Of a stretch of DNA of 64,000 nucleotides, positions 16,740 to 47,771 are shown one piece after another. The stretch covers positions 4,030,001 to 4,094,000 of the forward strand of contig NZ_CP016076.1 of the NCBI RefSeq assembly GCF_001941625.1, read 5' to 3'. Numbering within the stretch: the stretch's first letter is position 1; every line of letters starts with the position of its first letter. A model generated the notes under the pieces. It was not told the DNA's origin, did no database searches, and was given only the letters and a program-made list of their open reading frames with translations. The translations under genes and the position numbers were made by a program. The DNA comes from Actinoalloteichus fjordicus. GTDB taxonomy: Bacteria; Actinomycetota; Actinomycetes; Mycobacteriales; Pseudonocardiaceae.

Positions 16740-17365
16740 TGTGTACCGCGCTCCTTCTCCCCGCACCGGTCACCGCGAACAAAGAGTGAGACCATTCGAC
16801 TGCGGACAGCACGAACGGCAATGGTCGCGCTCAGTCACGCCAGAGTTGCATGGAAGAACCGGGCCGAGTAACCCCTGTCCGAAACCCCTAGGCGTCTCAC
16901 CAGCGCTTTCCTGGCGGGCCCTCCACCTCGTGAGAACGGGATGAATTCCACGCGCAGTCGCCTCGGTGCGAGGTCGCCCGACCTGCGAGATCCGCGATGA
17001 CGACTGCGAAGTCGGACTGCAAACGAGGGAGGAAGGTCCAGTCCGAAGAGGACAGCTGCCCCGCCCGGCGCCGCGCGGCGGCCCTGCCACAGACGATCAC
17101 CGGGCCGCTCGTCGCCCGGATGGGTCGGAAAAGCCGCGTCAGTCGGAAAGCCGCGTCAGAAGGCCGCGACGGAGGAGCCGGGGCATAGGGACACGACGGG
17201 AAGGCGGTCGGCGAACCGCGCGACGAACGCTGTCGAGGAGCGGGACCACTCGGCCGCGCGACACCGAAGGCTTCCGGTCGGGCTCGCGCAGGCGAGCCAG
17301 GGCGGCAGGCCGGGCCCGCTGCCCGCCGCGCCGCCGCGAGCCGCCCCCGCGTCACCTCGTCGAGG
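16740..17365. other. Leader/promoter region of the PKS gene
   Basis: No gene is supported here. Read on the minus strand, it holds the Shine-Dalgarno of the PKS gene and, about 130 bases upstream of its start, CCTAGGGGTTTCGGACAGGGGTTAC in two AGGGGTT direct repeats 13 bases apart. The CTAGGG part resembles one half of the LuxR/PimM-type operator known from macrolide clusters, but the second half is poor. Short open frames across it have no homology or ribosome binding site that I can support. Confidence 0.4.
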
Positions 17366-25925: not shown

Positions 25926-26597
25926 ATGGCAGCACGGGCACGTTCCGACGGAGACGGAAGAGTCGAGCGCGGGAACCAGACCCGCAGACTGATCCTGAAA
26001 CGCAGCGTGGACACGGCGTCCGTCGAAGGACTCGAGGGCCTCTCGCTCGGCCGACTCGCGGCCGAACTCCAGCTCAGTAAGAGCGGGGTGTTCGCCCTCT
26101 TCGGGTCCAAGGTGGACCTGCAACTCGCCACGGTCCGGGCGGCGATCGCGATCTACGTCGAACACGTCGTGCTGCCTCCCCATGAGCTGCCGCCCGGTCT
26201 CGGCAGGCTCTGGAGGGTGTGCACCTCCTGGCTTCGCTACTCCCGAGGGCGGGTGTTCCCCGGCGGCTGTTTCTTCTACGCCGTCTCGGCGGAGTACGAC
26301 GCCCGCGAAGGTCCGGTGCACGAGGCCCTCGCCGCAGCCCGCGCCGACTGGACCGGCTTCCTCGAGCGGACGGTCCGTGAGGCACAGCGGGTCGGCGAGG
26401 TGCGGGCGGAGGTCGACGGCCCTCAACTCGTCTTCGAGATGATCGCCCTGATGGAGCTGGCGAACGCCGAGTCCGTGATGCACGGCGACGACGGCTACTA
26501 CGACAAGGCGACCAAGGGCATCATCACCAGACTGCGCGACGCGGCCGTCGACCCCACGCTGCTGCCCGAAGCATCGTCGCCGTCCGACGTCGGCTGA
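25926..26597 (+). CDS. TetR-family regulator
   Basis: A 223-residue repressor-type protein. The N-terminal DNA-binding part has TRRLILKRSVDTASVEGLEGLSL and the recognition helix LQLSKSGVFALFGSKVDLQLATV (about residues 20-75). The C-terminal ligand domain has FPGGCFFYAVSAEYD, shared by a common actinobacterial TetR subgroup. The ribosome site is weak (AGGCA). It may control the hydrolase gene 138 bases upstream, but I see no clear operator in the short gap. Confidence 0.9.
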   Translation: MAARARSDGDGRVERGNQTRRLILKRSVDTASVEGLEGLSLGRLAAELQLSKSGVFALFGSKVDLQLATVRAAIAIYVEHVVLPPHELPPGLGRLWRVCTSWLRYSRGRVFPGGCFFYAVSAEYDAREGPVHEALAAARADWTGFLERTVREAQRVGEVRAEVDGPQLVFEMIALMELANAESVMHGDDGYYDKATKGIITRLRDAAVDPTLLPEASSPSDVG

Positions 26598-27027: not shown

Positions 27028-28794
27028 TCAGCCCTCGCTCGACGCCGCAGGCCTCGGTGTCAGGCGCAGCACGCTGCCTTCGCCGTTCGCCGAGAGGTAG
27101 AGCGCGCCGTCCCGATCCACCGCGAGGCCGGTGAACTGCCGGGGCAGGCCCGGCATGCCGTGGCAGAAGAGGGCGGGTTCGGCGCGGGTGATCCCCGGCG
27201 GGAGGCCCACCGGAAGGTCCTCGGCGTCGATCCGGTGCTCCCCCGTGCTGAGGCTGATCGCCCGCAGCCGCCGATGCTCGGTCTCCACGACGAACAGCTC
27301 GTCGCCCCGGATCGCCAGGCCCTGTGGCGCGCCGAGGTCGTCGGCGACGAGTACCGCCTCGCCGTCGTCGAGCCGGAACACCGCGCCGCGACCGGCATCG
27401 CTCACGTGACAGCGCTGCCGGTCGTCGAAGGCCACGTCCACGGGGTGGTCCAACCCGTCCGCGAGCACGGTGACGACGTCGTCCTCATCCACCGCAAGGA
27501 CCCGGCCGGTTCCCGTCTCGGCGACGACGAGCGAGCCGTCGCCGCGCACGGCCAGGCCTGCGGGCCGATCCAGTCCATCGGCCCGCACCCGCACGGTTCG
27601 GGCGACCGGGTCGTAGGTGCACAGCCTGCCGTACTGCGAACTCACGTGCAGCAGGCCCTCGGCGGCGGCGACGCCGTGGACGAAGATCATCATCTCGCGG
27701 GTGCGGACGCCGCCCGGCTCCCCGGCCCGACTGCGCGAGCCGTCGAGAACGGCCGGGCCGCCGGGGCCGCCCGCGCTGCCCGAACCCCCGTGCCCCGCCG
27801 AAACCGCCGCGCTCGCCGAGTCCACCGGACTCGCAGGTTCCGCCGGACTCGCAGCGTCCGCCGGACTCGCCAGCCGGTAGTGGTCGGCCGCATACACCGT
27901 GCCGTCGCCGCCGACCGCCACGCCGAACGGGCCGTCGAGCCCCTGCGGGACGACGTCCCTGGTCCGGCCGTCGACGTGCAGCTCGGCGATGCCGCCGCTG
28001 GCATAGCTGGAGACGAACATCCGGTTCTCGTCGTCGAAGGCCGCGTTGTCCAGCCCCGTCACCCCGCTGGCGACGACCGTGCGCGATCCGGTGCCTGCGA
28101 GGTCGACGCCGGTCACGAGGCCCGCTGCCCCGCGCGACAGGACGAAGAGCACGCCGCCCCGATCGAAGCGCACCGCCACGGGCTCGTGCACCTCGTCGGC
28201 GACGAGCTCGGGCTCGCCGCCCTCGAGCGGAATCCGGAAGACCTGGTCGGTGAGCATGTGCGGGTAGTAGAGGCAGCCGTCCGGACCGAGCTGCATCGCA
28301 TTGCCCATGACCAGTCCGTCGGTGAGCACCCTCGGCTCACCGCCGTCCGGGAACAGCTCCACCAGCCTGCCGTCGATCGTCATCTCGTTGACGAAGAGCC
28401 GATCGCCGACGCAGGTGATGCCGTTGGGCACCCGCAGCTGATCGGACACCAGGCTGAACTCGCCGCGCGGATCACGACGCCACACCCGGCCGGGCACGAG
28501 ATCGGTGATGTACATCGAGCCGTCCGCTCCGAAGGCGAGGTCGTCCGGTGCCTGCACGACTCCGTCGGCGGGCACGATCACCTCGACGTCCCCGGAAGCG
28601 ACGTCGACCGCGCTGATCTGCCCGGCGAGGAACTGCGCGACGTACAGCCGTCCGTCCGGTCCGAAGGCGACGCCGTTGGAGCCCCACAGCCGGTTCGGCC
28701 GATTGAGCCGCCGAATCTTCCACCGGGTGCTCGTCGGTCCGGAATGTCCCGCAGCGGCGAACCGGCTCGGCTGCGCGAACGCCTCGGCGCTCAT
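27028..28794 (-). CDS. SMP-30/NHL-type beta-propeller protein, possible lactonase
   Basis: A 588-residue protein made of repeated propeller blades (GPDGRLYVAQF, GADGSMYITDL, GGDGTVYAADHY, RGDGSLVVAETGTG, DRDGALYLSANGEG), about twice the size of a single SMP-30 propeller, so probably two propellers. A low-complexity Ala/Pro/Ser/Gly insert (about residues 298-345, SPADAASPAEPASP) separates the halves. Its ATG overlaps the stop of the monooxygenase gene by four bases (ATGA, 28791-28794), so the two are translationally coupled. Known SMP-30-fold enzymes hydrolyse lactones and bind a divalent metal, and a Baeyer-Villiger enzyme makes esters or lactones, so a ring-opening role is attractive. I cannot identify metal ligands with certainty, and a binding or scaffold role is also possible. 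No signal peptide is seen. Confidence 0.85.
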   Translation of the reverse strand: MSAEAFAQPSRFAAAGHSGPTSTRWKIRRLNRPNRLWGSNGVAFGPDGRLYVAQFLAGQISAVDVASGDVEVIVPADGVVQAPDDLAFGADGSMYITDLVPGRVWRRDPRGEFSLVSDQLRVPNGITCVGDRLFVNEMTIDGRLVELFPDGGEPRVLTDGLVMGNAMQLGPDGCLYYPHMLTDQVFRIPLEGGEPELVADEVHEPVAVRFDRGGVLFVLSRGAAGLVTGVDLAGTGSRTVVASGVTGLDNAAFDDENRMFVSSYASGGIAELHVDGRTRDVVPQGLDGPFGVAVGGDGTVYAADHYRLASPADAASPAEPASPVDSASAAVSAGHGGSGSAGGPGGPAVLDGSRSRAGEPGGVRTREMMIFVHGVAAAEGLLHVSSQYGRLCTYDPVARTVRVRADGLDRPAGLAVRGDGSLVVAETGTGRVLAVDEDDVVTVLADGLDHPVDVAFDDRQRCHVSDAGRGAVFRLDDGEAVLVADDLGAPQGLAIRGDELFVVETEHRRLRAISLSTGEHRIDAEDLPVGLPPGITRAEPALFCHGMPGLPRQFTGLAVDRDGALYLSANGEGSVLRLTPRPAASSEG

Positions 28795-30620
28795 TCGGCG
28801 TCGACCATGACGTCGTTCATTCCACCGCCGTCCCGCCAACGTCTGAGCAGTTCGTGGAACACGACGGGCCCGTTGCTGTAGGTCTCGCCGCGCGGGCGCG
28901 GTCGTCCCTCGTTGTTGTAGTAGCCGGGGGTGCACTCGGCCTGGAACCGGTACTGGTCCGGCGCGTTCGCCCGGAGGGTGGTCACCCAGGCCTCCTCGGC
29001 CGCCGCGCTCGGCTCGATGCGACGGGCCTTGCGCTCGCGTGCCTCGGCGACGACCTCGGCGACATGCTTCGCCTGCTCGTCGAGGACGTGCACGAAGTTG
29101 ACCGAGGCCGCGTTCTGCAACGGGCCCAGATGGAACAGGTTGGGAAACCCGTTGCTGTAGAAGCCGTGCAGTGTCTTGGGACCACGCCCCCAGTACTCGG
29201 TGAGCGCCACCCCGTTGCGGCCGTATACCGGCAGACTGCCGGACAACACGCCCGAGATGCCGACCTCGAAGCCGGTCGCGAAGACGATGCAGTCGACCTC
29301 GTACTCCGTCCCGCCGACCACCACGGCGTTCTCGGTGATGCGCTCGACTCCCCCGTGATCGGCGGTGTCGACCAGCGTGACGTCGTCTCGGTTGAACGCC
29401 TCCAGGTAGTGATCGCTGAAGGTCGGGCGCTTGCACATGTAGCGGTACCAGGGCTTGAGGGCCTCGGCGGTCGCCGGGTCCTTGACGACGGCGTCGACCC
29501 TGGCACGGATCTCGTTCATCTTCTGGAAGTCGGCGATCTCGTTCACGTGCTCCCGCTCCTCGGGAGGCAGATCCCGGTAGGCATCGCTCGGGATGAGGTT
29601 CTGCAGCAGTCGGGCGCTGCCGGTCCAGCCGTCGGCTACCAGGTCCTCCTCGGCCTGACCGCCGTGAACGATCGTGAGGAAGTTGTCCATCCGGCGCCGC
29701 TGCCAGCCGGGAGTCAGCGACTCGGCCCACTTCGGGTCCGTGCGGCCGTTGCCTCGGACGTCGACCGAGGATGGGGTGCGCTGGAACACGTACAGGTGCT
29801 GGGCGTCGCGGCCGAGGTGCGGCACGACCTGAATGGCGGTCGCGCCGGTCCCCACCAGTGCGACGCGCTTGTCCGCGAGCCGGTCCAGGCCGCCGTCGGC
29901 GTTACCGCCGGTGTAGTCGTAGTCCCAACGACTCGTGTGGAAGGTGTGCCCGGCGAAGGTCTCGATGCCGGGGATGCCGGGGAGCTTGGGCCTGCTCAGT
30001 GTTCCGCTGGACACCACGACGTGCCGCGCTCGCATCTCGTCGTCGCGGTTGGTGCGGACGATCCACTCCGACTTCTCGTCGTCCCAGCGCAGTTCGGTGG
30101 CCCTGGTCTGGAAACAGACGTCGCGGTAGAGGTCGAAGTGCCGCCCGATCGCTCTGGCGTGCTGCCGGATCTCCTCGCCCGGCGCGTACTTCCACTCCGG
30201 GACGTACCCGACCTCCTCCAGCAGCGGCATGTAGACGTAGGACTCGATGTCGCAGTGGATACCGGGATAGCGGTTCCAGTACCAGGTCCCGCCGAAGTCC
30301 CCCGCCTCCTCGATCACTCGGATGTCCTCGACGCCCGCCTGCCGAAGGCGGGCTCCGGTGAGCAGGCCGCCGAACCCGCCGCCGACGATCACCACCTCGA
30401 CCCGGTCGTGCAGCGGCTCGCGGGTGCGCTCGACGTCGGAGTAGGGATCGTCCGCGTAGTAGCCGAAGTCGCCGTCGACGCGTCGGTACTGCGCGTTGCC
30501 GTCGGGTCGGATGCGGCGGTCTCGCTCGGCCCGATACCTGGCGCGGAGGGCCTCCGGGTCGAAGCCGAGCTGGTCGGGAAGCGCGGCGTGGGCGGCGGGG
30601 GGCTGGTCAGGCGTGGGCAT
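28791..30620 (-). CDS. Type I Baeyer-Villiger monooxygenase
   Basis: A 609-residue FAD- and NADPH-dependent monooxygenase that should convert a ketone to an ester or lactone. The FAD Rossmann motif is VIVGGGFGGLLTG (78-89), the Baeyer-Villiger fingerprint FxGxxxHxxxW[P/D] is FAGHTFHTSRWD (222-233), and the NADPH Rossmann motif is GTGATA (257-262). EEAGDFGGTWYWNRYPG is also typical. An N-terminal extension of about 70 residues places it with the longer members (cyclopentadecanone and PtlE-like enzymes) rather than the short cyclohexanone type. The start ATG at 30620 has GAGAGG 6 bases upstream. It is first in a two-gene operon with the propeller gene. Its promoter contains the 20-bp dyad shared with the TetR operon and the exporter. 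Confidence 0.95.
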   Translation of the reverse strand: MPTPDQPPAAHAALPDQLGFDPEALRARYRAERDRRIRPDGNAQYRRVDGDFGYYADDPYSDVERTREPLHDRVEVVIVGGGFGGLLTGARLRQAGVEDIRVIEEAGDFGGTWYWNRYPGIHCDIESYVYMPLLEEVGYVPEWKYAPGEEIRQHARAIGRHFDLYRDVCFQTRATELRWDDEKSEWIVRTNRDDEMRARHVVVSSGTLSRPKLPGIPGIETFAGHTFHTSRWDYDYTGGNADGGLDRLADKRVALVGTGATAIQVVPHLGRDAQHLYVFQRTPSSVDVRGNGRTDPKWAESLTPGWQRRRMDNFLTIVHGGQAEEDLVADGWTGSARLLQNLIPSDAYRDLPPEEREHVNEIADFQKMNEIRARVDAVVKDPATAEALKPWYRYMCKRPTFSDHYLEAFNRDDVTLVDTADHGGVERITENAVVVGGTEYEVDCIVFATGFEVGISGVLSGSLPVYGRNGVALTEYWGRGPKTLHGFYSNGFPNLFHLGPLQNAASVNFVHVLDEQAKHVAEVVAEARERKARRIEPSAAAEEAWVTTLRANAPDQYRFQAECTPGYYNNEGRPRPRGETYSNGPVVFHELLRRWRDGGGMNDVMVDAE

Positions 30621-30881
30621 GCAGGCCTCTCTGTCGTGTCGCCGGCGGTGTTCCTCGGTCGCGGAGCGGCTGTGGGCGGGCGAGGTCGCCGCCGTCCACA
30701 GCAGACCGATCGATCGACCTCGACCCGGGGCCTCGCGAGCGGCAGGGCGACGGCGCGGCCGCCCGCTCCCTCGCCCCTGCCGCGCACCGTCGGCACCCGG
30801 CATCCCGTGGCGCACCACAGGAGTGACCATCGGTGTTCCGGCGCCGGGCGCCCGGTCAGGTGCGGCGGCCCGGTTGTCGAG

Positions 30882-30935
30882 CTCGATCGACTCCAGCTAA
30901 GCGTCGCCTGATTGCTGAGTCAATCGACTGACTTA
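30882..30935 (-). promoter_or_regulatory. Promoter with operator copy A, driving the BVMO operon
   Basis: The dyad TGAGTCA-N6-TGACTTA occupies 30916-30935. Read on the minus strand, a TTGACT -35 box (30923-30918) overlaps it, and 18 bases further is TAGCTG (30899-30894) as -10. The same 54-base layout recurs at 37049-37102. The predicted transcript start is about 265 bases before the monooxygenase ATG, so the leader is long. A repressor bound here would cover the -35 box. Confidence 0.7.
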
Positions 30936-31056
30936 ATCATCGCTGGTCACCGCCCCGGGTGATGCTGATCACAGAAAGTGACTGTGAAGTCTGCGTGAGG
31001 ACCGGCGGGCGCCGAGGGACGCGCGGCGGCACCGAAGGTGCGGCTGCGGCCGCGTC

Positions 31057-31944
31057 TCAGCCCGGCTCGGCTGCCGAGGCCTCCGCCTGGCGATCCAGCG
31101 TCGCCGCCCAGCTCGCCAGCAGCCGCAGGGCGTCACGGGCGGTGCTGCCCGGCTCGGCGGTGTAGACGAGGAGGTTGAGTCCGGGGTCGGCGGTGAGGGT
31201 CAGCACCTCCCACGCGAGACCGAGGTCGCCGACCTGCGGATGCTGCATGTGCTTGACGCCGGAGTGGTGGAATCGCACGTTGTGCGCCGCCCAGCGCGTC
31301 CGGAACTCCTCGCTGCGGGTCGACAGCTCGCCGACCAGGTCGGAGAGCCCTCGGTCGTAGGGATCGCGGCCAGCCTCGGCCCGCAGCAGCCCCACGGTGT
31401 CGCTGGCGGCTCGCTCCCAGTCACGCCAGAACGCCCTCGCCCGAGGGTTGAGGAACAGGAAGCGGGCGTGGTTGGCAGGCCGGATCGGATCGGTGTACAT
31501 CTCCGAGTACAGCGCGTGACCGAGCCGGTTGGCGGCGAGGATGTCGAGTCGCCCGTTGAGCACGAAGGCGGGCGCGTCGTCCATCGCGTCGAGGATGCGC
31601 TGCACGCTCGGCCGCACGCGATGCTGCTGCCGGCTGCGTCGCGGACGTGCCGTGGTGTTCGCCGAGCGTGCCAGGTCGAACAGGTGGGCACGTTCTGCGT
31701 CGTCCAGCTGCAACGCGCGGGCGAGGGCGCCCAGCACGCTCTCGGAGACGCCGCTGAGATTGCCCCGCTCCAGACGGGTGTAGTAGTCGACGCTCACCCC
31801 GGCGAGCAGCGCCGCCTCCTCCCGACGCAGGCCGGGAACACGCCGATTGCCGCCGTAGATGCTCAGCCCGGCCTGGTCCGGCGTGATCCTGCCCCGCCTG
31901 GAGGTCAGGAACTCGCGGATCTCGTTCCGGTAGTCCACGACCAC
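31057..31944 (-). CDS. XRE-family regulator with MmyB-like ligand-binding domain
   Basis: A 295-residue paralogue of the 19892-20734 regulator. The helix-turn-helix is GLRREEAALLAGVSVDYYTRLE, and the ligand domain begins at DDAPAFVLNGRLDILAANRLGHALY and ends LVYTAEPGSTARDALRLLASWA. The start is chosen as GTG at 31944 (VVVDYRNEIREFL); GTG at 31938 is equally possible, and neither has a good ribosome site. It is divergent from the alcohol dehydrogenase gene (32159), which it probably controls through the 214-base gap with its nested inverted repeat. Family members often act as repressors released by an electrophilic or hydrophobic compound. Confidence 0.88.
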   Translation of the reverse strand: MVVDYRNEIREFLTSRRGRITPDQAGLSIYGGNRRVPGLRREEAALLAGVSVDYYTRLERGNLSGVSESVLGALARALQLDDAERAHLFDLARSANTTARPRRSRQQHRVRPSVQRILDAMDDAPAFVLNGRLDILAANRLGHALYSEMYTDPIRPANHARFLFLNPRARAFWRDWERAASDTVGLLRAEAGRDPYDRGLSDLVGELSTRSEEFRTRWAAHNVRFHHSGVKHMQHPQVGDLGLAWEVLTLTADPGLNLLVYTAEPGSTARDALRLLASWAATLDRQAEASAAEPG

Positions 31945-31970
31945 CAGGGTAAGACCGGCCCGGACGTGCA

Positions 31971-32008
31971 GGGAGGTACTGCCGTTACCTGACTCGACAG
32001 GTCCTCCC
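31971..32008. promoter_or_regulatory. Nested inverted repeat between XRE and ADH genes
   Basis: The outer arms are GGGAGG/CCTCCC and the inner dyad is ACCTG-ACTCGA-CAGGT (31987-32002). It lies centrally in the divergent promoter region and is the best candidate operator for the XRE regulator. Confidence 0.45.
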
Positions 32009-32158
32009 GAGGCCGCGTCAGTGCGGGTTTCATCCTCGGTGGTCCAGGGGACCCGGAGAGCGAGCACGACGATCCGACCGTCATCGAAGACGGCCTCGCC
32101 GCCCCGGAGACGTCCCTGGGCAGCCCATCGACGAAGACGATTCGAGAGAAGGAAGCTC

Positions 32159-33193
32159 ATGCGAGCCACCTTGATCTACGGTGCCGGTGACGTGCGGGTG
32201 GAGGACGTTCCCGACGCCAGGCTGCACGAGCCCACCGACGCCGTGGTGCGGGTCCTGCGGTCGTGTGTCTGCGGCAGCGACCTGTGGCCCTTCGGCTCCC
32301 GACCCGCCTCCGCGCACGGCGACCGGATGGGACACGAGTTCCTCGGCGTGGTGGAGGAGGTCGGCTCGGCGGTGTCCGGGCTGACGGCCGGTGACGTGGT
32401 GGTCGCCCCGTTCGTCTGGGCGGACAACACCTGTGACTTCTGCGCCGAGGGTCTGCAGACCTCGTGCAGGCACGGCGGGAACTGGGGCGCGCCCGACGTC
32501 GACGGCGGCCAGGGCGAGGCCGTGCGGGTTCCCCAGGCGCAGGGCACGCTGGTCCGACTGCCCGTCGCGGAGGACTCCGCGCTGCTGCCGTCGCTGCTCA
32601 CCCTCTCCGACGTCCTGCCGACCGGCCATCACTGCGCGGTGACGGCCGGGGTCGGACCCCGCACCACCGTCACGGTGATCGGCGACGGCGCCGTCGGGCT
32701 CTCGGCCGTGCTGGCCGCCAAGCGGCTCGGCGCCGAACGCATCCTGCTGATGGGCAGGCACGCCGACCGCACCGACCTCGGCCGCGAGTTCGGCGCCACC
32801 GACGTCGTCGCCGAGCGCGGCGCGGAGGGCGTCGAGCGGGTCCGCGAGCTGACCGGCGGCGACGGCACGCACGCCGTGCTGGAGTGCGTGGGCACCCTGC
32901 CCGCGATCGAGACGGCCTTCGGCGTGGTCCGCGACGGCGGCGCGGTCAGCAGGGTCGGCGTGCCGCAGTACTCCGAGGTCCCCATGGACTTCGGCGTGTT
33001 CCTGCGCAACGTCACCCTCACCGGCGGGGTCGCGCCCGCCCGCGCCTACATCGACGAACTGCTGCCCGCCGTGCTCGACGGTGTCATCCAGCCCGGCAAG
33101 GTGTTCGACCGGACCGTGAGCCTGGACAAGGTGGCCGACGGCTACCGTGCGATGGCCGACCGCACCGCGCTGAAGGTGCTCGTCCAGCCCTGA
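32159..33193 (+). CDS. Zinc-dependent alcohol dehydrogenase family protein
   Basis: A 344-residue medium-chain dehydrogenase. Catalytic zinc ligands are C38 (CVCGSDLW), H59 and E60 (RMGHEFLG). The nucleotide-binding motif is VIGDGAVGLSAVL (about 174-186). The structural-zinc loop (NTCDFCAEGLQTSC) shows three cysteines rather than the usual four, and HGGNWG follows. It should oxidise an alcohol or reduce a carbonyl with NAD(P)H. The start ATG has GAAGGAAG 5 bases upstream. It is divergent from the XRE regulator and ends in a strong shared terminator. In context it could supply the ketone for the neighbouring Baeyer-Villiger enzyme, but that is inference. Confidence 0.93.
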   Translation: MRATLIYGAGDVRVEDVPDARLHEPTDAVVRVLRSCVCGSDLWPFGSRPASAHGDRMGHEFLGVVEEVGSAVSGLTAGDVVVAPFVWADNTCDFCAEGLQTSCRHGGNWGAPDVDGGQGEAVRVPQAQGTLVRLPVAEDSALLPSLLTLSDVLPTGHHCAVTAGVGPRTTVTVIGDGAVGLSAVLAAKRLGAERILLMGRHADRTDLGREFGATDVVAERGAEGVERVRELTGGDGTHAVLECVGTLPAIETAFGVVRDGGAVSRVGVPQYSEVPMDFGVFLRNVTLTGGVAPARAYIDELLPAVLDGVIQPGKVFDRTVSLDKVADGYRAMADRTALKVLVQP

Positions 33194-33238
33194 GCCGCTC
33201 GTTTCGATCCTTAAGCGACTTGCCGGAGCGGACAGGCC

Positions 33239-33271
33239 GAGGTGGCGAGGGTCCGGTGTCCTCGCCACCTC
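33239..33271. terminator. Bidirectional terminator between ADH and P450 genes
   Basis: GAGGTGGCGAGG, a 9-base loop, CCTCGCCACCTC: a perfect 12-bp stem between converging genes, 45 bases from either stop. Confidence 0.85.
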
Positions 33272-33316
33272 CGGCGCGGCGGCGGCCGCGCGTCGGCTCG
33301 GCTCAGCCGACGCCGA

Positions 33317-34527
33317 TCACCAGGCGACCGGCAGTTCGTAGACGCCGTAGACGAAGCCGTCGTGCTTGAAGGGCACCTCGTCGAAGTCGACGGCGAGCCG
33401 CAGACCGGGGATGCGTCGGTAGAGCGTGCTGTAGACGGCCTGGAGTTCCAGCCGCGCCAACGACTGCCCGAGACACTGATGTCCGCCGAAGCCGAAGGCC
33501 ACGTGGTGCCGGGCCTCCCGCAGCACGTCGAGCCGATCGGGATCGGGGAAGGCCTCGGCGTCCCGGTTGGCGATCTCGTTGGGCAGCACCAGGCCTTCGC
33601 CCGCCTGCACGGTCTGCCCGCCGACCTCGATGTCGGCCATGGCCACCCGGCGCCTGCCGCCGTGGGTGATGTTGAGGTAGCGCAGCAGTTCGTCGACCGC
33701 GCCCGCGACGACCTTCGGATCGTCGGCGTCGCGCACGAGGGCGAGCTGATCGGGGTTGCGCAGCAGGGCGAGCGTGCTCAGCGCGATCATGTTCGCGGTG
33801 GTCTCGTGCCCGGCGATCAGCAGGAGCACCGCCATCGACGTGGCCTCCGGCGTGGTCAGCTCGCCCTTGGTGATCCGCGCGGCCAGCCGGGACAGCAGGT
33901 CGTCGCCGGGATCGTCGATCTTGGCGGTCACCAGGGTGTGGAGGTAGCCACCCAGCCGTTCGATGGCGGCGGCCCGCTGCTCCGGCGTCGAGTTCCGGTT
34001 GATGAGGGTCCGGCTGTTGCTCTGGAAGAACTCGTGATCGGCGTAGGGGACGTCGAGCAGGTCGCAGATCACCAGCGACGGCACCGGGAGGGCGAAGGCC
34101 TCCACGAGGTCCACCGGCGTCGGCCCGGCCAGCATGTCGTCGATGGCATCGTCGATGATCTTCTGCACGGCAGGCCGCATGGCCGCCACCCGTTTCACCG
34201 TGAACTCGGCGCTGACCATCCGACGCAGCCGGGCGTGCTCGGGGTCGTCCATCCCGATGAAGCTGAGGCTCCCGGCCTTGCCGGGGGCCTGGCGCGAAAG
34301 TCGGGGCGGGTCATGTCTGCGCTGACCCTGGCGTCACCCAACACCGCGCGCTGTTCGGCATAGCGGGTGACCAGCCAGGGCGTGCTGCCGTCCCAGAGCC
34401 GGACCCGCGTCAGCGGTGCCTCCTCCTGGAGGGTGCGCAGCTCCGGGGGCGGGTCGAAGGGACAGCCCTGCGCCCTGGGCATGGGGTATTCGGGGGTCTC
34501 TGCGGAGGGTTCGGTCGTGCTCGTCAT
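33317..34527 (-). pseudogene. Cytochrome P450 with a one-base frameshift
   Basis: The N-terminal part (ATG 34527, GGAAGGA ribosome site) reads MTSTTEPSAETPEYPMPRAQ... to VSADMTRPDFRA and then runs out of frame. The rest continues in another frame from SLSFIGMDDPEHARLRRM to the end. Adding one C in the GCC run (about 34291-34292; GG to GGG on the plus strand) gives RAQAPGKAGSLSFIGMDDP and a 403-residue protein, exactly a bacterial class I P450. All hallmarks survive: AGHETT in the I helix, the ExxR helix, and FGFGGHQCLGQSLAR around the heme cysteine. It is last in the set with its own ferredoxin and reductase. A sequencing error in a C-run or a recent true mutation would both look like this. 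Confidence 0.88.
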
Positions 34528-34649
34528 CGTGATCCTTCCGGTGAGGGTGCCCGCCCGCGCAGACGGCGAAGGGCGGTACGGGGAGGGGTGGTACGGCGAC
34601 GGGCGTTCGGCGACGGAACGGCCGGGCGGCAGGCGGCGGGGCCCGAGGC

Positions 34650-35909
34650 TCAGCGATCCGCCGTCGCGGTGCGGGCTCGCGCCGCCGTCACGTGCTGTGT
34701 CACCTGCTGCGGTGCCGCGTCATTCGCGGGCGAGCGCTCCGGTCTCGGTTCGGCCAGCTGCCGTCGATGGGCGCGGGCCTGCTTGGGCATGTTCCAGCCC
34801 AGGACGCCGACGGCCTCGCCGCCTCGGCGATAGAGCGCGACGAAGCGGCGCGCGGCGACCTCGCCTTCCACGATCGTCACCTCGGCGTCGGCTCCGGGCA
34901 GGCCGTGGATCTGGAGCCGCGCCCCGAACTGGTCGGTCCAGAAATAGGGCACCGGCACGTACGAGCAGCGCCCGCCGAGCAGGTTGTCGGCGACCACGCC
35001 CGCCTGCTCGGCGGCATTGGTGCGGTTCTCCAGTCGCAGCGAGGCGCCGAGCCGCTCGTGGTGCCAGCGGGCGACGTCGCCCACCGCGTAGATCCCCGCC
35101 TCGGCGCGGCAGTGGGCGTCGCACACCACTCCGTCGGCCAGGCGCAGCCCGCTGCCGCGCAGCCAGTCCGTCGCGGGCACGGCGCCGAGTGCCACCAGGA
35201 CCACGTCCGCCGGGAGCACCTCCCCGTCGGCCAGTCGGACTCCGGTCACCCGGCCGTCGGGTGCGGCGGTCAGGCCGGTCACGGCGGTTCCGAGCCGAAG
35301 TCGGACGCCGTGTTCGGCGTGCAGCTCCGCCAGCGCATCCGCCACCAGCGGACCGAGCTGGGCGGCCAGCGGGGCCTGCTGCGGCCCGGCCAGGACGACG
35401 TCCAGGCCCATGCCGCGCGCGGTGGCGGCGACCTCCGCACCGAGCACCCCGTCCCCGACCACGACCAGTCGAGCCGAGTCCCGCAGGTCGGCCCGCAAGG
35501 CGAGCGCGTCGTCCAGGGTGCGCAGCACGTGGACGCCGCGGATGCCTGCCTGGTCGGGCAGCAGGCGTGGGCGGGCGCCGGTCGCCAGCACGACGGCGTC
35601 CGCGCTCAGGCTGAGCCCGGCTGCGGTGCGGACGGTCCGCGTCGGCACGTCCAACGCGGCGGCCGCATCGCCGAGGACGAGCCGGGCGTCCAGGGCGTCG
35701 AGGGCCTCCGGAGTCCGCAGCCGGGAGCGCGCGGGCTCCCACGTCCCGCCGAGGACCTGTTTGGACAGCGGGGGTCGGTCGTAGGGCGGATGAGCCTCGT
35801 CGCCGAGCAGGGTCAGCTCGCCGCCATAACCCTTGCGGCGTAACGCCTCCGCAGTGGCGAGCCCTGCGGCGGACGCCCCGACCACCAGGACCCCTGCGGG
35901 TGTGCTCAC
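34650..35909 (-). CDS. Ferredoxin reductase, FAD/NAD(P)H-dependent (putidaredoxin-reductase type)
   Basis: A 419-residue flavoprotein that passes electrons from NAD(P)H to the adjacent ferredoxin and on to a P450. The FAD Rossmann motif is at the N-terminus (GVLVVGASAAGLATAEAL), PPYDRPPLSKQVL follows, the NAD(P)H motif is VVGDGVLGAEVAATARGMG (about 146-164), and GDVARWHHERLG belongs to the second FAD motif. The GTG start (35909-35907) overlaps the ferredoxin TGA (GTGA), so translation is coupled. An ATG-proximal frame extending further upstream is rejected because it would overlap the ferredoxin by 39 bases. Confidence 0.93.
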   Translation of the reverse strand: MSTPAGVLVVGASAAGLATAEALRRKGYGGELTLLGDEAHPPYDRPPLSKQVLGGTWEPARSRLRTPEALDALDARLVLGDAAAALDVPTRTVRTAAGLSLSADAVVLATGARPRLLPDQAGIRGVHVLRTLDDALALRADLRDSARLVVVGDGVLGAEVAATARGMGLDVVLAGPQQAPLAAQLGPLVADALAELHAEHGVRLRLGTAVTGLTAAPDGRVTGVRLADGEVLPADVVLVALGAVPATDWLRGSGLRLADGVVCDAHCRAEAGIYAVGDVARWHHERLGASLRLENRTNAAEQAGVVADNLLGGRCSYVPVPYFWTDQFGARLQIHGLPGADAEVTIVEGEVAARRFVALYRRGGEAVGVLGWNMPKQARAHRRQLAEPRPERSPANDAAPQQVTQHVTAARARTATADR

Positions 35910-36106
35910 GCCGTCCCGCTGAGCTGGATCACGGCGGCGGGGCACACGTCGGCGGCCTCGCGGACCCTGTCGTGGAACTCCTCGGCGGGCTCGGCGTCCA
36001 GCAGCACCACGACGCCGTCCTCGTCACGCTGGTCGAACACCTCGGGCACGGCCAGGACGCACGAGCCCGCGCCGCAGCATTTGTCCTCGTCCACAGAGAT
36101 CTTCAT
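35906..36106 (-). CDS. 3Fe-4S ferredoxin, P450 redox partner
   Basis: A 66-residue ferredoxin of the actinobacterial [3Fe-4S] type found beside P450 genes. The first cysteines are in DEDKCCGAGSC and the last in ADVCPAAVI, giving the C-x5-C...CP pattern. The rest is acidic, as expected for docking to reductase and P450. It precedes the reductase with a four-base overlap and lies 72 bases after the TetR stop, so all are probably one transcript. Confidence 0.95.
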   Translation of the reverse strand: MKISVDEDKCCGAGSCVLAVPEVFDQRDEDGVVVLLDAEPAEEFHDRVREAADVCPAAVIQLSGTA

Positions 36107-36178
36107 CGGTTGCGCTCCTCATCACGGCGGGTGCCGGGCCTCGCCCAGGGTGGTGCCCGCCTGTCGATCCGTCTTCGA

Positions 36179-36832
36179 TCACACGTCGGTCACCGTGACC
36201 GGCGCGAGCCACATCCCGGTGATCGCGTCGATCAGGCCGGTAGCGGCGTCCTCCCAGGTGGCCCGGGCCGTGAGCGTTCCCTCGGCCAGGGCGCGCTCCC
36301 GCTCGGCGCAGGTGTGGGACATCAGATAGCGGGCCATCGCGCTGCGCTCGACATGCACCGGCAAGGGCAGCATCGGCAGACAGCGGTTGAGTCCGTCGAG
36401 CACCTGCTGGATGGGCTGGGTGCTCAGCGCCTCGTCGATGATGATCCGTCGGAGGCCGGGGTCGGTCATGACCTGGGCGCCGAACCGGGCGTACCAGGTG
36501 GGTCCGCCCAGCTCCGCCAGGTGTTCGGTGAACGGGCGCACCAGGCAGGCCACCCAGTCGCGCACCTCGTCGCTGTCGCCGATCTCGGCGAGCATCCGAA
36601 TGCGGATCAGCTCCACCGGCTCGGCGTGTCGGCGCACGATGGCACGGACCAGGTCCGCCTTGGTACCGAAGTGGTAGCCGACAGCGAAGTTGTTGCCCTG
36701 CCCGGCGGCCTCGCCGACCTGGCGGTTGGACACCGCGAACACCCCGTGCTCGGCGAACAGCCGCTCCGCCGCGCTCAGGATCAGCTCTCGAGTCTCCTCG
36801 ACCTGCTCGGCTCTTCTCGTTCTGCCCGGCAT
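36179..36832 (-). CDS. TetR-family regulator, likely repressor at the TRAGTCA dyads
   Basis: A 217-residue regulator. The DNA-binding region is EETRELILSAAERLFAEHG ... NNFAVGYHFGTKADLV (about residues 12-60), followed by a large helical ligand domain (VPWVRPF-type TetR_C). The ATG at 36832 is chosen because the protein then begins MPGRTRRAEQ like its relatives. It has no good Shine-Dalgarno of its own and starts two bases after the stop of a short frame with a strong one (36835-37029). It heads the ferredoxin/reductase/P450 set. Its promoter carries copy B of the dyad, so autoregulation is likely, with the monooxygenase operon and exporter as further targets. Confidence 0.9.
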   Translation of the reverse strand: MPGRTRRAEQVEETRELILSAAERLFAEHGVFAVSNRQVGEAAGQGNNFAVGYHFGTKADLVRAIVRRHAEPVELIRIRMLAEIGDSDEVRDWVACLVRPFTEHLAELGGPTWYARFGAQVMTDPGLRRIIIDEALSTQPIQQVLDGLNRCLPMLPLPVHVERSAMARYLMSHTCAERERALAEGTLTARATWEDAATGLIDAITGMWLAPVTVTDV

Positions 36833-36834
36833 CG

Positions 36835-37029
36835 TCACCACCGCACCGAGCCGCCGCGCCGCCCGGCGGGGATGAGGCCCTGGACACGCCGCCGCCCGGT
36901 ACCGGGTGCCGCCTCGTCGCCGCCGGGCAGCGTCGCAAGCGCCGACCCCTGCGGACCGCACGGCTCCGCAGGCGCCGTCAGGGCGGTGATCGGGCGGTTC
37001 AGCGCCTGCTGCGCGTCACTGCGCGTCAT
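36835..37029 (-). CDS. Small hypothetical ORF (64 aa), possible translational leader for TetR
   Basis: MTRSDAQQALNRPITAL..., 64 residues, basic and Pro/Gly-rich at the end, no recognised family. It is supported by its start: GGAGGAGG sits five bases before the ATG and about 25 bases after the predicted transcript start. Its TGA is two bases before the TetR ATG, which lacks a ribosome site. The peptide itself may be dispensable, and coupling may be its job. Alternatively the TetR protein could start in this region by another frame. Confidence 0.4.
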   Translation of the reverse strand: MTRSDAQQALNRPITALTAPAEPCGPQGSALATLPGGDEAAPGTGRRRVQGLIPAGRRGGSVRW

Positions 37030-37048
37030 GAGGCCTCCTCCAGTGGAT

Positions 37049-37102
37049 CTCGATCGACTCAAGCTAAGCGGGCTTCGTGATTTGAGTCAAGCGACTGACT
37101 TA
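37049..37102 (-). promoter_or_regulatory. Promoter with operator copy B, driving TetR/ferredoxin/P450 set
   Basis: The dyad TGAGTCA-AGCGAC-TGACTTA is at 37083-37102. On the minus strand a TTGACT -35 box (37090-37085) lies inside it, with TAGCTT -10 (37066-37061) 18 bases on. CTCGATCGACTC at 37049-37060 and AGCTAAGCG next to it are shared base for base with copy A at the same distance. Confidence 0.72.
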
Positions 37103-37487
37103 ACACGTTCGGTTGACTCCGGACATGGTCCCCGACGCCGCAGGCGGACCCGAGGCCGGCGTCGCTCCCGCCCGCTCCCCCGCCTGGCAGGGCATGGCCG
37201 CCACCCGCCCTGCGACCGGTCCTGCTCGCCACCTCGGAAGACCGCGCGGACCCGCAGTCAGCCGACCGGGCGCGCAGACCGACACGCCCGGCAGGGGGCC
37301 GCCCGACGCGCCGAGCCGTTGCACGGGAGCACGCCGAGGACGGCCCGAGGTTCGTACCCCTGAAGACGCTGCGCGAGACGACGGGACGCGCCAGAGTCGA
37401 AGACAGCGACCCCGACCACCCGAATACCGCCGAACGGACCCGCCGCCGCCCGACGGGCGGATCACCCGCGCCGACCTACGGCTAATC
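37103..37487. other. Divergent intergenic region
   Basis: No coding region is supported. It separates copy B (minus promoter) from copy C (plus promoter of the exporter). It is very GC-rich with no conserved element that I can see. Confidence 0.5.
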
Positions 37488-37507
37488 TAAGTCAACCGAC
37501 TGATTTA
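37488..37507 (+). promoter_or_regulatory. Operator copy C upstream of DHA2 exporter
   Basis: TAAGTCA-ACCGAC-TGATTTA, the third member of the dyad family, 45 bases before the exporter ATG. It lies in a local AT-rich patch with TAATCT just before it as a possible -10 box. A bound repressor would cover the start of transcription. Confidence 0.68.
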
Positions 37508-37552: not shown

Positions 37553-39025
37553 ATGTCGAGTGCTTCGGCACGAACCACCGACGTCGGGACGGTCGCCCCG
37601 CCACGCACGAACGTCGTCGTCTCGGTGCTGGCGATGGCAGGCATCGTCGTGGCGCTGATGCAGACCCTCGTCATCCCGCTGATCCCCGAACTTCCCCGGC
37701 TGCTGAACGCGACCACGGCGGACGCGAGCTGGGTGATCACCGCGACGCTGCTGTCCGCCGCCGTCGCCACCCCCACGATCGGCCGACTGGGCGACATGTA
37801 CGGCAAGAGACGCATGCTGCTGGTGAGCCTGGCGCTCCTGGTGACAGGTTCGGTCATCGGCGCGCTCAGCAACTCGCTTGCGCCCATGATCGTCGGGCGA
37901 GTGCTGCAGGGCCTCGCCGCAGGCGTGATCCCGCTGGGGATCAGCATCATGCGGGACGAACTGCCCGCCGAACGGCTGGGCTCGGCGACGGCGATGATGA
38001 GCGCGTCACTCGGCGTGGGCGGCGCGCTCGGGCTGCCCACCGCGGCGCTGCTGGCCGAGTACACCGACTGGCACGTGCTGTTCTGGGCGTCCGCCGTCCT
38101 CGGGGCGACCGCCGCCGGACTGGTGTTCGCCCTGGTGCCCGAATCCCGCATCCGCACCGGAGGCCGCTTCGACCTCGTCGGCGCGATCGGGCTGTCGACC
38201 GCGTTGATCTGTCTGCTGCTGGGCGTCTCCAAGGGCGCCGACTGGGGATGGACCAGCGGGCTCACCACCACGATGTTCGCCGTCACCGCCGTGGTGCTCG
38301 CGGCCTGGGGCTGGTGGGAGCTGCGGACCCGGCAGCCGCTGGTGGACCTCCGCACCACCATGCGTCGCCAGGTGCTGCTGACCAACCTCGCCTCGGCGGT
38401 GTTCGGCTTCTCGATGTTCGCGATGTCGCTGGTGATGCCGCAGCTGCTGCAGCTGCCCACCGCCACCGGGTACGGGCTGGGCCAGCCGATGATGACCGTC
38501 GGGCTGGTCATGGCGCCGTCCGGGCTGGTCATGATGGCGATGGCCCCGGTGTCGGCCCGCATCTCACGACTGAGCGGGCCGAGGACGACGCTGATGGTGG
38601 GCGCCGTCGTGGTCGCGGCAGGCTACGGCCTGAGCATGGTGCTGATGTCGGCGATCTGGCAGCTGATGTTGATCTCCAGCATCATCGGGGCAGGCATCGG
38701 CATCGCTTACGGGGCGATGCCCGCACTCGTCATGTCGGCCGTGCCCGTGTCGGAGACGGCCGCCGCCAACAGCCTGAACACGCTGATGCGGTCGATCGGC
38801 ACCTCGCTGTCCAGCGCGGTGGCAGGCGTCGTCCTCGCGCAGTTGACCATCACGCTCGGCTCTACCGCCGTCCCGTCCCAGAACGGCTTCCGCGTGGTCA
38901 TGGCCATCGGAGCGGGCGCGGCACTGGCCGCCGCCGTCATCGCCGCCTTCCTGCCCAGGCGGCGGCCGAGCGTGCCGTCCTCGGTGGCGACGGAGAAGGC
39001 CGCACCCGCCGAGCTCGCGAGCTGA
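37553..39025 (+). CDS. DHA2-family drug:H+ antiporter (MFS, 14 TM)
   Basis: A 490-residue inner-membrane exporter. The N-terminal helix starts near residue 22, motif A is GRLGDMYGKRRM (about 78-89), and the motif-C-like region follows in the fifth helix. The length fits 14 helices. It has GAAAGG 7 bases before the ATG and operator copy C just upstream, linking it to the TetR regulator at 36179-36832. It is expected to export the TetR ligand or a related toxic compound or product. It is not closely similar to the exporter at 17595-19154 beyond the family level. Confidence 0.94.
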   Translation: MSSASARTTDVGTVAPPRTNVVVSVLAMAGIVVALMQTLVIPLIPELPRLLNATTADASWVITATLLSAAVATPTIGRLGDMYGKRRMLLVSLALLVTGSVIGALSNSLAPMIVGRVLQGLAAGVIPLGISIMRDELPAERLGSATAMMSASLGVGGALGLPTAALLAEYTDWHVLFWASAVLGATAAGLVFALVPESRIRTGGRFDLVGAIGLSTALICLLLGVSKGADWGWTSGLTTTMFAVTAVVLAAWGWWELRTRQPLVDLRTTMRRQVLLTNLASAVFGFSMFAMSLVMPQLLQLPTATGYGLGQPMMTVGLVMAPSGLVMMAMAPVSARISRLSGPRTTLMVGAVVVAAGYGLSMVLMSAIWQLMLISSIIGAGIGIAYGAMPALVMSAVPVSETAAANSLNTLMRSIGTSLSSAVAGVVLAQLTITLGSTAVPSQNGFRVVMAIGAGAALAAAVIAAFLPRRRPSVPSSVATEKAAPAELAS

Positions 39026-46541: not shown

Positions 46542-47771
46542 TCACCAGGTGACGGGCAGCGCGTGCAGGCCGTAGATCGTCATGTCCACGCGAAACGGGA
46601 GCTGCTCCAACGGCACGGCGGGCCGCATCGTCGGGAACCGACGCAGCAGCGTGGCGACGGCGATCTGGAGTTCGACGCGGGCCAGGGTCTGGCCGACGCA
46701 CTGGTGGACGCCGAAGCCGAAGGCGACATGGCGCGCAGCGTTGGGACGGCCGATGTCCAGCACATCGGGATTCCCGAACTCTCGCGGATCGCGGTTGACC
46801 GCGGGAATCGCGATGATCACCCCCTCGCCCGCCCTGAGCCGCCGTCCGCCGATCTCGACATCCTCGGTGACCGCACGACGCGGTCCGTTGCGGATGATGC
46901 TGTGCAGGCGCAACAGCTCCTCGACGGCGCCTCGGATCAGTGCCGGGTCTTGACGGAGACGCTCGGCGGTCTCGGGGTCGCGCATCAGGGTCAGGGCGCT
47001 CAACCCGATCATGTTGGCGGTCGTCTCGAACCCACCGATCAACAGGACCGCGGCGATGGCCAGCAGCTCGTGGCGGGACAGCTCGCCGGATCGCACCTGC
47101 TCGACCACCAGGCGACTGAGGAGGTCCTCACCGGGATCGTGCTCCTTGGCGGTCACCAGCTCGTCGAGGTAGGCAGCCAGTTCGTTCAGGACACCGGCAA
47201 GCTCCGCAGGGCTGCACTCGCGGGAGTTCATCCTGGCGGTGATGTCCCGAAATCGAGGGTGATCCTCCTCCGGGATGCCCAGGAGCAGGCCGATCACCGA
47301 GGACGGCAGCGGCAGCGCCATCGCCGAGACCAGGTCGACCGGCCGTCCGGCCCGTTCCATCGCGTCGCAGAGTCCCTCGGCCAGCTCCTCGATCCGAGGG
47401 CGCAGGGCCTCGACGCGCCGGACCATGAACTCCCCCGTCAGCATGCGCCGCAACCGAGTGTGCTCGGGCGGGTCCATGCGGATGAAGCCGAGACTGACGA
47501 TGTTCGTGTCGGTCGTGCTGCCGCCGACCATGCCGCTGGTCGGGAAGCCGGGTGTGGCGGGCACGGAGCTGAACCGTCGATGGTCGCCGAGCACCGCGCG
47601 GGCCTCGGCGTGACCGGTGACCAGCCAGGCCTCACTCCCGTCGTCGAGGGAGACCCGACTCAGCGGCGCCTCCGCGTGCAACGCGTCCAGACCCGCAGGC
47701 AGCTCGAACGGACAGCCCGGCGGCGGGGCGACCGGCAGCGGCGGCACGGCGGACGCGACGGGGGAAGACAC
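46542..47771 (-). CDS. Cytochrome P450
   Basis: A 409-residue bacterial class I P450. The I-helix is LLIGGFETTAN, with the usual acid-threonine pair. ExxR is in EELLRLH, and the heme loop is FGFGVHQCVGQTLAR with C358. The N-terminus (PPPGCPFELPAGLDALHAEA) is of the same type as the frameshifted P450 at 33317-34527. No ferredoxin or reductase is adjacent, so it may borrow the pair at 34650-36106. The annotated GTG (47771) lacks a close ribosome site. AGGAG lies about 22 bases upstream, at the right distance for an ATG in another frame, so the start deserves care. The substrate is unknown. Confidence 0.93.
   Translation of the reverse strand: MSSPVASAVPPLPVAPPPGCPFELPAGLDALHAEAPLSRVSLDDGSEAWLVTGHAEARAVLGDHRRFSSVPATPGFPTSGMVGGSTTDTNIVSLGFIRMDPPEHTRLRRMLTGEFMVRRVEALRPRIEELAEGLCDAMERAGRPVDLVSAMALPLPSSVIGLLLGIPEEDHPRFRDITARMNSRECSPAELAGVLNELAAYLDELVTAKEHDPGEDLLSRLVVEQVRSGELSRHELLAIAAVLLIGGFETTANMIGLSALTLMRDPETAERLRQDPALIRGAVEELLRLHSIIRNGPRRAVTEDVEIGGRRLRAGEGVIIAIPAVNRDPREFGNPDVLDIGRPNAARHVAFGFGVHQCVGQTLARVELQIAVATLLRRFPTMRPAVPLEQLPFRVDMTIYGLHALPVTW

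What the first reader, a model, noticed from the sequence alone, without database searches (positions are those of the whole stretch)
30882..37507. Three-copy 20-bp dyad defines a TetR regulon: Baeyer-Villiger operon, TetR/ferredoxin/P450 set and exporter
TGAGTCA-ATCGAC-TGACTTA (30916-30935), TGAGTCA-AGCGAC-TGACTTA (37083-37102) and TAAGTCA-ACCGAC-TGATTTA (37488-37507) share the form TRAGTCA-N6-TGAYTTA, with CGAC always at the end of the spacer. Each sits directly upstream of one transcription unit. TetR proteins typically bind such dyads, and the TetR gene at 36179-36832 lies in the middle. Together they look like one ligand-responsive module for oxidation and export that I do not recognise as a described system.
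Basis: partly seen in the sequence, partly recalled or inferred. Interest (0 to 1): 0.75.

Follow-up and report, generated by a model that had tools for sequence, protein, structure and literature searches.

The report
TetR operator regulon for oxidation and export
Three copies of a 20-base palindrome mark the genes that one TetR-type switch very probably controls in this actinomycete (oxidising enzymes and a pump), and the same switch and palindrome occur together in many other actinomycetes, which points to a common chemical-response system for which we found no description.

Summary
The three dyads exist at the stated places and are the only ones with 0-1 mismatch in the 7.12-Mb genome. Comparative evidence ties them to the TetR gene at 36179-36832. 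Among 60 relatives, exact dyads occur in 18 of 22 genomes with this TetR and in 0 of 38 without. In a class-wide sample of 296 genomes it is 27 of 40 against 3 of 256. Of 34 exact sites in the relatives, 33 lie beside TetR, P450, ferredoxin, MFS or BVMO genes, several far from TetR. The fuller operator is TAAGTCA-RNYRNY-TGACTTA. It supplies the -35 box of the TetR/P450 and BVMO promoters and abuts the -10 box of many exporter promoters, so repression is likely. The usual core is P450a-TetR-ferredoxin-reductase-P450b plus MFS; the BVMO operon carries the operator only in the closest homologues. In the window P450a has decayed and P450b is frameshifted. The ligand is unknown; detoxification of a hydrophobic compound is the likeliest role. 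Searches of an open-licence library found no description. It is a new member of a known kind, but widespread and sharply defined.

The parts
30916..30935 (-). Operator 1 (TAAGTCA-GTCGAT-TGACTCA read towards the BVMO gene)
   Evidence: the BVMO promoters of G001, G002, G024 and G025 match TRARTCAN6TGAYTYA exactly, that of G023 with 1 mismatch
30918..30923 (-). -35-like box TTGACT inside operator 1
   Evidence: sequence; 29 of 34 such promoters have TTGACT here
30894..30899 (-). -10-like box TAGCTG, 18 bp from the -35 box
28791..30620 (-). Type I Baeyer-Villiger monooxygenase, 609 aa
   Evidence: PDB best match 5mq6 E 2.7e-135; NCBIfam PtlE 745.6 bits, below cut-off 1100
27028..28794 (-). Tandem beta-propeller, SMP-30/NHL-like protein, 588 aa, start overlaps the BVMO stop
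   Evidence: Pfam SGL 7.5e-19; model pLDDT 77.8, beta-rich
37083..37102 (-). Operator 2 (TAAGTCA-GTCGCT-TGACTCA read towards tetR)
37085..37090 (-). -35-like box TTGACT inside operator 2
37061..37066 (-). -10-like box TAGCTT, 18 bp from the -35 box
36835..37029 (-). 64-aa ORF, probable remnant of P450a, which many relatives carry between this operator and tetR
   Evidence: 64 bp starting with the operator are 79% identical to G001; weak matches to both ends of P450a; no Pfam family
36179..36832 (-). TetR-family regulator, 217 aa, candidate repressor
   Evidence: Pfam TetR_N and TetR_C_30; model pLDDT 93.0; only match at E<=1e-30 in its genome
35906..36106 (-). 4Fe-4S single-cluster ferredoxin, 66 aa
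   Evidence: Pfam Fer4_13
34650..35909 (-). FAD-dependent ferredoxin reductase
   Evidence: Pfam Pyr_redox_2 and Reductase_C (scanned from 35945)
33317..34528 (-). Cytochrome P450 (P450b, CYP105-like); N-terminal and main parts lie in different frames; the main part is 33317-34252
37488..37507 (+). Operator 3
37483..37488 (+). -10-like box TAATCT whose last base is the first base of operator 3
   Evidence: 8 of 13 exporter promoters have TANNNT at exactly this offset, none at 55 other offsets
37553..39025 (+). MFS exporter (EmrB/DHA2-like), 490 aa
   Evidence: Pfam MFS_1; NCBIfam TIGR00711 170.6 bits, below cut-off 230.2

Best explanation
The dyad is the operator of the TetR protein encoded at 36179-36832. 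Without ligand the TetR binds the 20-bp palindrome and blocks RNA polymerase: at the -35 box of its own P450/ferredoxin operon and of the BVMO-propeller operon, and at the -10/start region of the MFS gene. A hydrophobic compound (external toxin, natural product or drug-like molecule), or its oxidised product, releases TetR. The cell then makes a P450 redox chain (P450, ferredoxin, reductase), a Baeyer-Villiger enzyme with a propeller protein that may open the ester or lactone, and an exporter. Shown here by computation: sites, genes, co-occurrence, promoter geometry. Inferred: binding, repression, ligand release, chemistry, detoxification role.
For: Dyad and TetR co-occur: 18 of 22 against 0 of 38 relatives (Fisher 8e-12); 27 of 40 against 3 of 256 in a class-wide sample, or 25 of 38 against 3 of 254 without the four genomes shared with the first set. 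33 of 34 exact sites in the relatives lie beside genes of the same families. Of 30 sites fetched from 25 further TetR-bearing genomes, 20 lie within 220 bp of the TetR match, 4 within 110 bp of an MFS or P450a match and 6 at 0.6-3.5 kb from TetR; the 3 sites in genomes without TetR have no match to any regulon protein within about 5 kb. Sites far from tetR or on another contig precede BVMO (G001, G025; G023 with 1 mismatch), MFS (G028, G114, G281), P450a (G018, G039) and Fd-FdR-P450b (G014, 134 kb from tetR, next to a TetR fragment). Of 80 named-genome loci, 52 have an exact dyad and 61 one with at most 1 mismatch. Spacer positions left free in the search are conserved. Promoter geometry. The best PDB match by Foldseek E-value is NicR2, whose 20-bp inverted repeats with 7-base half-sites overlap the -35/-10 boxes (PMC6550519, passages).
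Against: No binding or expression data. 4 of 22 relatives, 13 of 40 class genomes and 28 of 80 named loci with the TetR lack an exact dyad (19 of 80 lack even a 1-mismatch one). BVMO homologues of 70% identity or less have no match under 4 mismatches within the fetched 1.5-kb flanks. Several genomes have two TetR paralogues that may share sites. The -10 box at 18-19 bp is seen in 16 of 34 promoters and the exporter -10 in 8 of 13; both box patterns were written after looking at the sequences. The window's P450b is frameshifted and P450a decayed, so the oxidising branch may be partly dead here. Geometry suggests repression, but a TetR-family protein can activate (AtrA, PMC3511530, passages).
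Confidence: 0.77

Rival explanations
1. The same TetR regulon, but serving an endogenous metabolite: tailoring, self-resistance or turnover of a compound the strain makes itself, not detoxification of foreign chemicals.
For: BVMO and P450s score best in NCBIfam against pentalenolactone-pathway enzymes. A type I modular polyketide synthase gene lies in the same window at 264-16766, about 10 kb from the propeller gene.
Against: Those NCBIfam hits are far below the curated cut-offs (745.6 of 1100; 233 of 700). Within 5 kb of sites the five commonest protein clusters are P450, TetR, MFS, Fd and FdR. Of the next clusters (5-13 loci each) I scanned 10 representatives: none is a polyketide, peptide or terpene synthase (DNA ligase, response regulators, histidine kinase, SDR, HemC, NPP1, M24 peptidase, two without a Pfam match); other clusters were not scanned. 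The wide spread over genera and the unlinked sites fit a general response better.
Confidence: 0.26
2. The dyads are bound by another regulator of the neighbourhood, such as the XRE protein (31057-31941) or the TetR at 25926-26597.
For: Both lie close to the BVMO operon in the window.
Against: The dyad tracks the 36179-36832 TetR across genomes and sits beside its gene in most loci. No XRE homologue was found (E<=1e-8 to 1e-10) at the BVMO sites of G001, G002, G024 or G025; of these four, only G002 has the other TetR in the fetched region.
Confidence: 0.04
3. The three copies are recent duplications of a promoter segment and the shared sequence has no regulatory meaning.
For: Operators 1 and 2 share about 20 further bases downstream (GCTTAGCT-N-GAGTCGATCGAG) in this genome.
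Against: The flanks differ in other genomes while the 20 bp stay; sites recur across families and keep the palindrome.
Confidence: 0.03

Closest known systems
NicR2 of Pseudomonas putida (nicotine degradation)
   Same: TetR fold (best PDB match by E-value, TM 0.67; PA3006 has the higher TM 0.72); 20-bp inverted repeat with 7-base half-sites overlapping -35/-10; controls oxidative genes and an mfs gene (PMC6550519, passages)
   Different: 21-23% identity; operator sequences differ (CTATATGTACAGCCATATAA there); no nicotine-pathway family among the window proteins' Pfam or NCBIfam hits shown
EthR-EthA of mycobacteria (TetR next to a BVMO)
   Same: TetR regulator and a Baeyer-Villiger enzyme (EthA as BVMO: recalled)
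   Different: EthR motif is larger and not a simple spaced palindrome (PMC4482099, passages); here the BVMO is not divergent from tetR and is a lineage-specific member
Herbicide-inducible P450SU1/SU2 operons of Streptomyces griseolus
   Same: P450SU1 (CYP105A1) is among the best PDB matches of P450b. The ferredoxin partner and chemical induction there are recalled, not seen in a call
   Different: No regulator or operator of that system could be compared; the listings showed no paper on its regulation
Pentalenolactone enzymes PtlE and PntM
   Same: Best NCBIfam models for the BVMO and for both P450 types
   Different: Scores below the equivalog cut-offs
Seven footprinted Streptomyces TetR-family operators (ActR, SCO7222, SCO3367 and others)
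   Same: Operators near the TetR gene, repression of exporters or a monooxygenase
   Different: None of the listed operators resembles TAAGTCA-N6-TGACTTA (PMC3511530 Table 2, passages)

Membership tests
TetR family of regulators | N-terminal TetR helix-turn-helix and all-helical TetR fold | tested here: met
   PF00440 and PF17939 above gathering score; model pLDDT 93.0 with TetR-family structures as best PDB matches
TetR family of regulators | palindromic operator at its own and neighbouring promoters | tested here: met
   sequence and comparative evidence only
TetR family of regulators | ligand-reversible DNA binding | not testable with these tools
   needs purified protein
NicR2-type system | 20-bp inverted repeat with 7-base half-sites overlapping -35/-10 | tested here: met
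   overlap predicted from sequence only
NicR2-type system | same operator sequence | tested here: not met
   CTATATGTACAGCCATATAA and TTATACCGTCGTACATATAA against TAAGTCARNYRNYTGACTTA
Type I Baeyer-Villiger monooxygenases | near full-length similarity to solved BVMOs | tested here: met
   5mq6 E 2.7e-135 over residues 8-579 (its class recalled); phenylacetone monooxygenase 9e-77
PtlE/PenE (neopentalenolactone D synthase) | score above the NCBIfam equivalog cut-off | tested here: not met
   745.6 bits against 1100
Pentalenolactone synthase (PntM) | score above the NCBIfam equivalog cut-off | tested here: not met
   233 bits (P450b main part), 222.3 (P450b part of L041) and 266.9-286.7 (three P450a) against 700
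CYP105 P450s | closest to named CYP105 enzymes and above 40% identity | tested here: inconclusive
   best matches with a CYP105 or P450SU1 name are 8swl (105Q4) and 2zbx (P450SU1); the top match 5y1i carries no family name; identity and formal naming not determined
EthR-EthA system | TetR gene divergent to the BVMO gene | tested here: not met
   BVMO and tetR are on the same strand, 5.6 kb apart

The most novel reading that the evidence does not exclude
This is a conserved actinomycete xenobiotic-response regulon: one sensor family and one operator word that coordinate oxidation (two P450s with their own redox chain, in some lineages a BVMO and a propeller protein, in others perhaps a short-chain dehydrogenase) and export, with unlinked genes recruited by acquiring the operator, much as animal drug-sensing receptors coordinate drug oxidation and efflux.
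Probability: 0.4. Interest if true: 0.72.

Novelty: new member of a known kind. Interest (0 to 1): 0.52.

Why it matters
It gives a precise, testable operator and a sensor for a module found, dyad included, in named species of Streptomyces, Saccharopolyspora, Amycolatopsis, Nonomuraea, Streptosporangium, Mycobacterium and others. What switches on CYP105-like P450s in actinomycetes can then be asked directly with a reporter. The unlinked sites allow reading, genome by genome, which oxidising genes belong to the response, and suggest how a BVMO operon enters or leaves a regulon by gain or loss of the operator.

Tried and rejected
Spacer rule CGAC: true only in the window; replaced by RNYRNY. Other operators in the genome: none convincing, the count up to 3 mismatches is near the reversed control. 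A lost second TetR gene between operators 2 and 3 (G001 carries one there): no remnant detectable, best tblastn score 19.6 bits against up to 25.0 in 100 shuffles. XRE gene and alcohol dehydrogenase as regulon members: no dyad at their starts. Pentalenolactone-type pathway: scores below cut-offs. Hydrolase reading of the propeller protein: the fold search gave generic tandem propellers such as LRP proteins with poor TM-scores, so a lactone- or ester-opening role is a guess. TetR tree: the label 'dyad in region' needs at least 6 changes, 3 of them forced by well-supported branches, so sites have been gained or lost repeatedly. One exact site in G024 (C1:10378527) has an off-rule spacer and no regulon gene beside it; it is counted as the one miss of 34 but was left out of the 105 sites. 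Literature searches in the open-licence library found no description of this operator or regulon; subscription papers are not held.
Full report
Observation. The three dyads are present at 30916-30935, 37083-37102 and 37488-37507. With up to 3 mismatches there is no further match in the window, against a mean of 1.47 in shuffled windows. In the whole genome (one contig, 7,120,854 bases; window = 4030001-4094000) they are the only places with 0 or 1 mismatch. With the refined consensus and up to 3 mismatches the count (33 per strand, these three included) is about that of the reversed control (29), so there is no clear second tier.

Genes. Minus strand: SMP-30/NHL-like protein 27028-28794, BVMO 28791-30620, P450 33317-34528, ferredoxin reductase 34650-35909, ferredoxin 35906-36106, TetR 36179-36832. 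Plus strand: MFS 37553-39025. Between the BVMO and the P450 lie an MmyB-like XRE regulator and a zinc alcohol dehydrogenase, without dyads. The BVMO is nearest to 5mq6 in the PDB. Among the best PDB matches of the P450 are CYP105Q4 and P450SU1.

Who binds the dyad. A search of 60 relatives (own genome included) found this TetR at E<=1e-30 in 22. Exact dyads TRARTCAN6TGAYTYA occur in 18 of the 60, all within those 22 and none in the other 38; the reversed pattern occurs in 2. That pattern had been widened after seeing loci of the same genomes, so the better test is a class-wide draw of 296 genomes (four shared with the first set). There the refined dyad occurs in 30 and the TetR (E<=1e-40, only the 10 best candidates scored per genome) in 40, with 27 in common; without the shared genomes 25 of 38 against 3 of 254. 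The three genomes with a dyad and no TetR have no match to a regulon protein beside it, and two of those stretches have about 40% GC, where chance matches are likelier. Among 36 TetR homologues in the aligned set, 26 lie in a region holding a dyad with at most 1 mismatch. The 10 without comprise 4 of the 30 with at least 53% identity and all 6 with at most 48%. In the window's genome this TetR is the only match at E<=1e-30.

What it marks. In the relatives 33 of 34 exact sites lie beside genes of the same families; one of the 33, the second G042 site, is beside a more distant P450 of about 30% identity. A frequent order is operator, P450a, TetR, ferredoxin, reductase, P450b, with the exporter divergent from the same or a second operator; many loci lack one or more of these. 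Sites far from tetR or on another contig mark the same families: BVMO and propeller gene in G001 and G025 and (1 mismatch) G023, MFS in G028, P450a in G018 (whose TetR is only 44-45% identical) and G039 (P450a 42%), and ferredoxin-reductase-P450b in G014, 134 kb from tetR and next to a TetR fragment. In the class sample the sites away from any TetR in G114 and G281 both precede an MFS gene. Of its 30 sites fetched from TetR-bearing genomes other than G000 and G042, 20 lie within 220 bp of TetR, 4 within 110 bp of MFS or P450a, and 6 at 0.6-3.5 kb from TetR. A short-chain dehydrogenase gene recurs close to sites in 10 loci and may be a further member in some lineages.

The BVMO unit. BVMO homologues (E<=1e-120) occur in 18 of 60 relatives. 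The six of at least 75% identity (G000, G001, G002, G023, G024, G025) all carry the dyad, G023 with 1 mismatch to the half-sites. The homologues of 70% identity or less show no match under 4 mismatches in the fetched loci (1.5-kb flanks), although G009 and G031 keep a clear propeller gene and G026 and G035 partial matches to it. The BVMO-propeller operon is thus a lineage-specific member, not part of the core.

Operator and promoters. From 105 sites (53 distinct up to strand) the consensus is TAAGTCA-R-N-Y-R-N-Y-TGACTTA. The half-sites were selected by the search, but the spacer was free, yet positions 10 and 11 are always Y and R and positions 8 and 13 are strongly biased. In 34 promoters read towards P450a, TetR, BVMO, Fd or another P450, the right half-site gives TTGACT in 29, and a T[AGT][AG]C[TC][GT] box follows at 18 bp in 12 and at 19 bp in 4, with 7 scattered matches at other distances. 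In 13 exporter promoters, TANNNT ends exactly on the first base of the operator in 8, and occurs at none of 55 other offsets. Both patterns were written after looking at the sequences, so they describe rather than test. Both layouts predict direct occlusion of RNA polymerase. The best PDB match of the TetR model (pLDDT 93.0) by E-value is NicR2, which also uses 20-bp inverted repeats with 7-base half-sites over the -35/-10 boxes (PMC6550519, passages), with another sequence.

Decay in the window. Many relatives have a P450a gene between the operator and tetR. Here only a 64-codon ORF remains. The 64 bp that start with the operator are 79% identical to G001, and a 55-bp stretch resembles the end of the G001 P450a gene (71%, E 0.042). 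The ORF's peptide matches P450a weakly at both ends: the C-terminus (42% over 31 residues, E 8e-4) and the N-terminus (36% over 58, E 0.075), in a two-sequence search. This fits an internal deletion but is weak evidence; the G002 stretch gives no clear protein match. P450b of the window is split over two frames near its residue 80, whereas G002 reads through. In turn G002 keeps only a C-terminal stretch of the reductase and has its propeller gene in several frames. These may be real decay or sequencing errors.

Mechanism and role. Shown: sites, genes, co-occurrence and promoter geometry. Inferred: TetR binding, repression, ligand release. The role as detoxification of a hydrophobic compound rests on family knowledge (promiscuous CYP105-like P450s, an EmrB-like exporter, BVMO chemistry) and on the spread over genera. 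An endogenous ligand is not excluded: a type I modular polyketide synthase gene lies about 10 kb from the propeller gene.

Known or new. The kind is known: TetR repressors of oxidation and export. This regulon and operator were not found in the open-licence library (searches; passages seen in PMC4482099, PMC3511530, PMC6550519 and PMC10858194, the rest only as listings). The seven footprinted Streptomyces operators in PMC3511530 differ. The mycobacterial motif logos of PMC4482099 are not in the text and could not be compared.

Noticed in passing
window 33317-34528: The P450b gene is split over two frames while its homologue in the sister genome G002 is continuous; real mutation or assembly error is open.
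   Followed up: partly
L040 1492-3275 and 8832-9119 (genome G002): In G002 the propeller gene is spread over several frames and the ferredoxin reductase is reduced to a C-terminal stretch, so the module seems to decay differently in two sister species.
   Followed up: partly
window 46542-47771: A second P450 gene, 47% identical to the main part of P450b, lies outside the module without a dyad; G002 also has a P450 downstream of its LysR gene (51%, cut by the region's end).
   Followed up: partly
window 30880-30900 and 37047-37067: Beyond the operator, the BVMO and tetR promoters of this genome share about 20 bases (GCTTAGCT-N-GAGTCGATCGAG) downstream, suggesting promoter copying or a further shared element.
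   Followed up: partly
L082 9402-9533 (genome G014): A 44-residue TetR C-terminal piece (73% identical) sits just before an operator that leads into Fd-FdR-P450b, probably a truncated TetR copy.
   Followed up: no
L041, L044, L050: These genomes (G001, G023, G025) carry two TetR paralogues of this subfamily close together, each with an operator nearby; how they share sites is unknown.
   Followed up: partly
L160 7129-7944, L055 10106-10924: A short-chain dehydrogenase gene lies close to dyads in 10 loci, in L055 between two of them; a possible further regulon member.
   Followed up: partly
window 264-16766: A 5500-aa type I modular polyketide synthase gene (KS, AT, DH, KR and ACP domains by Pfam).
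   Followed up: partly
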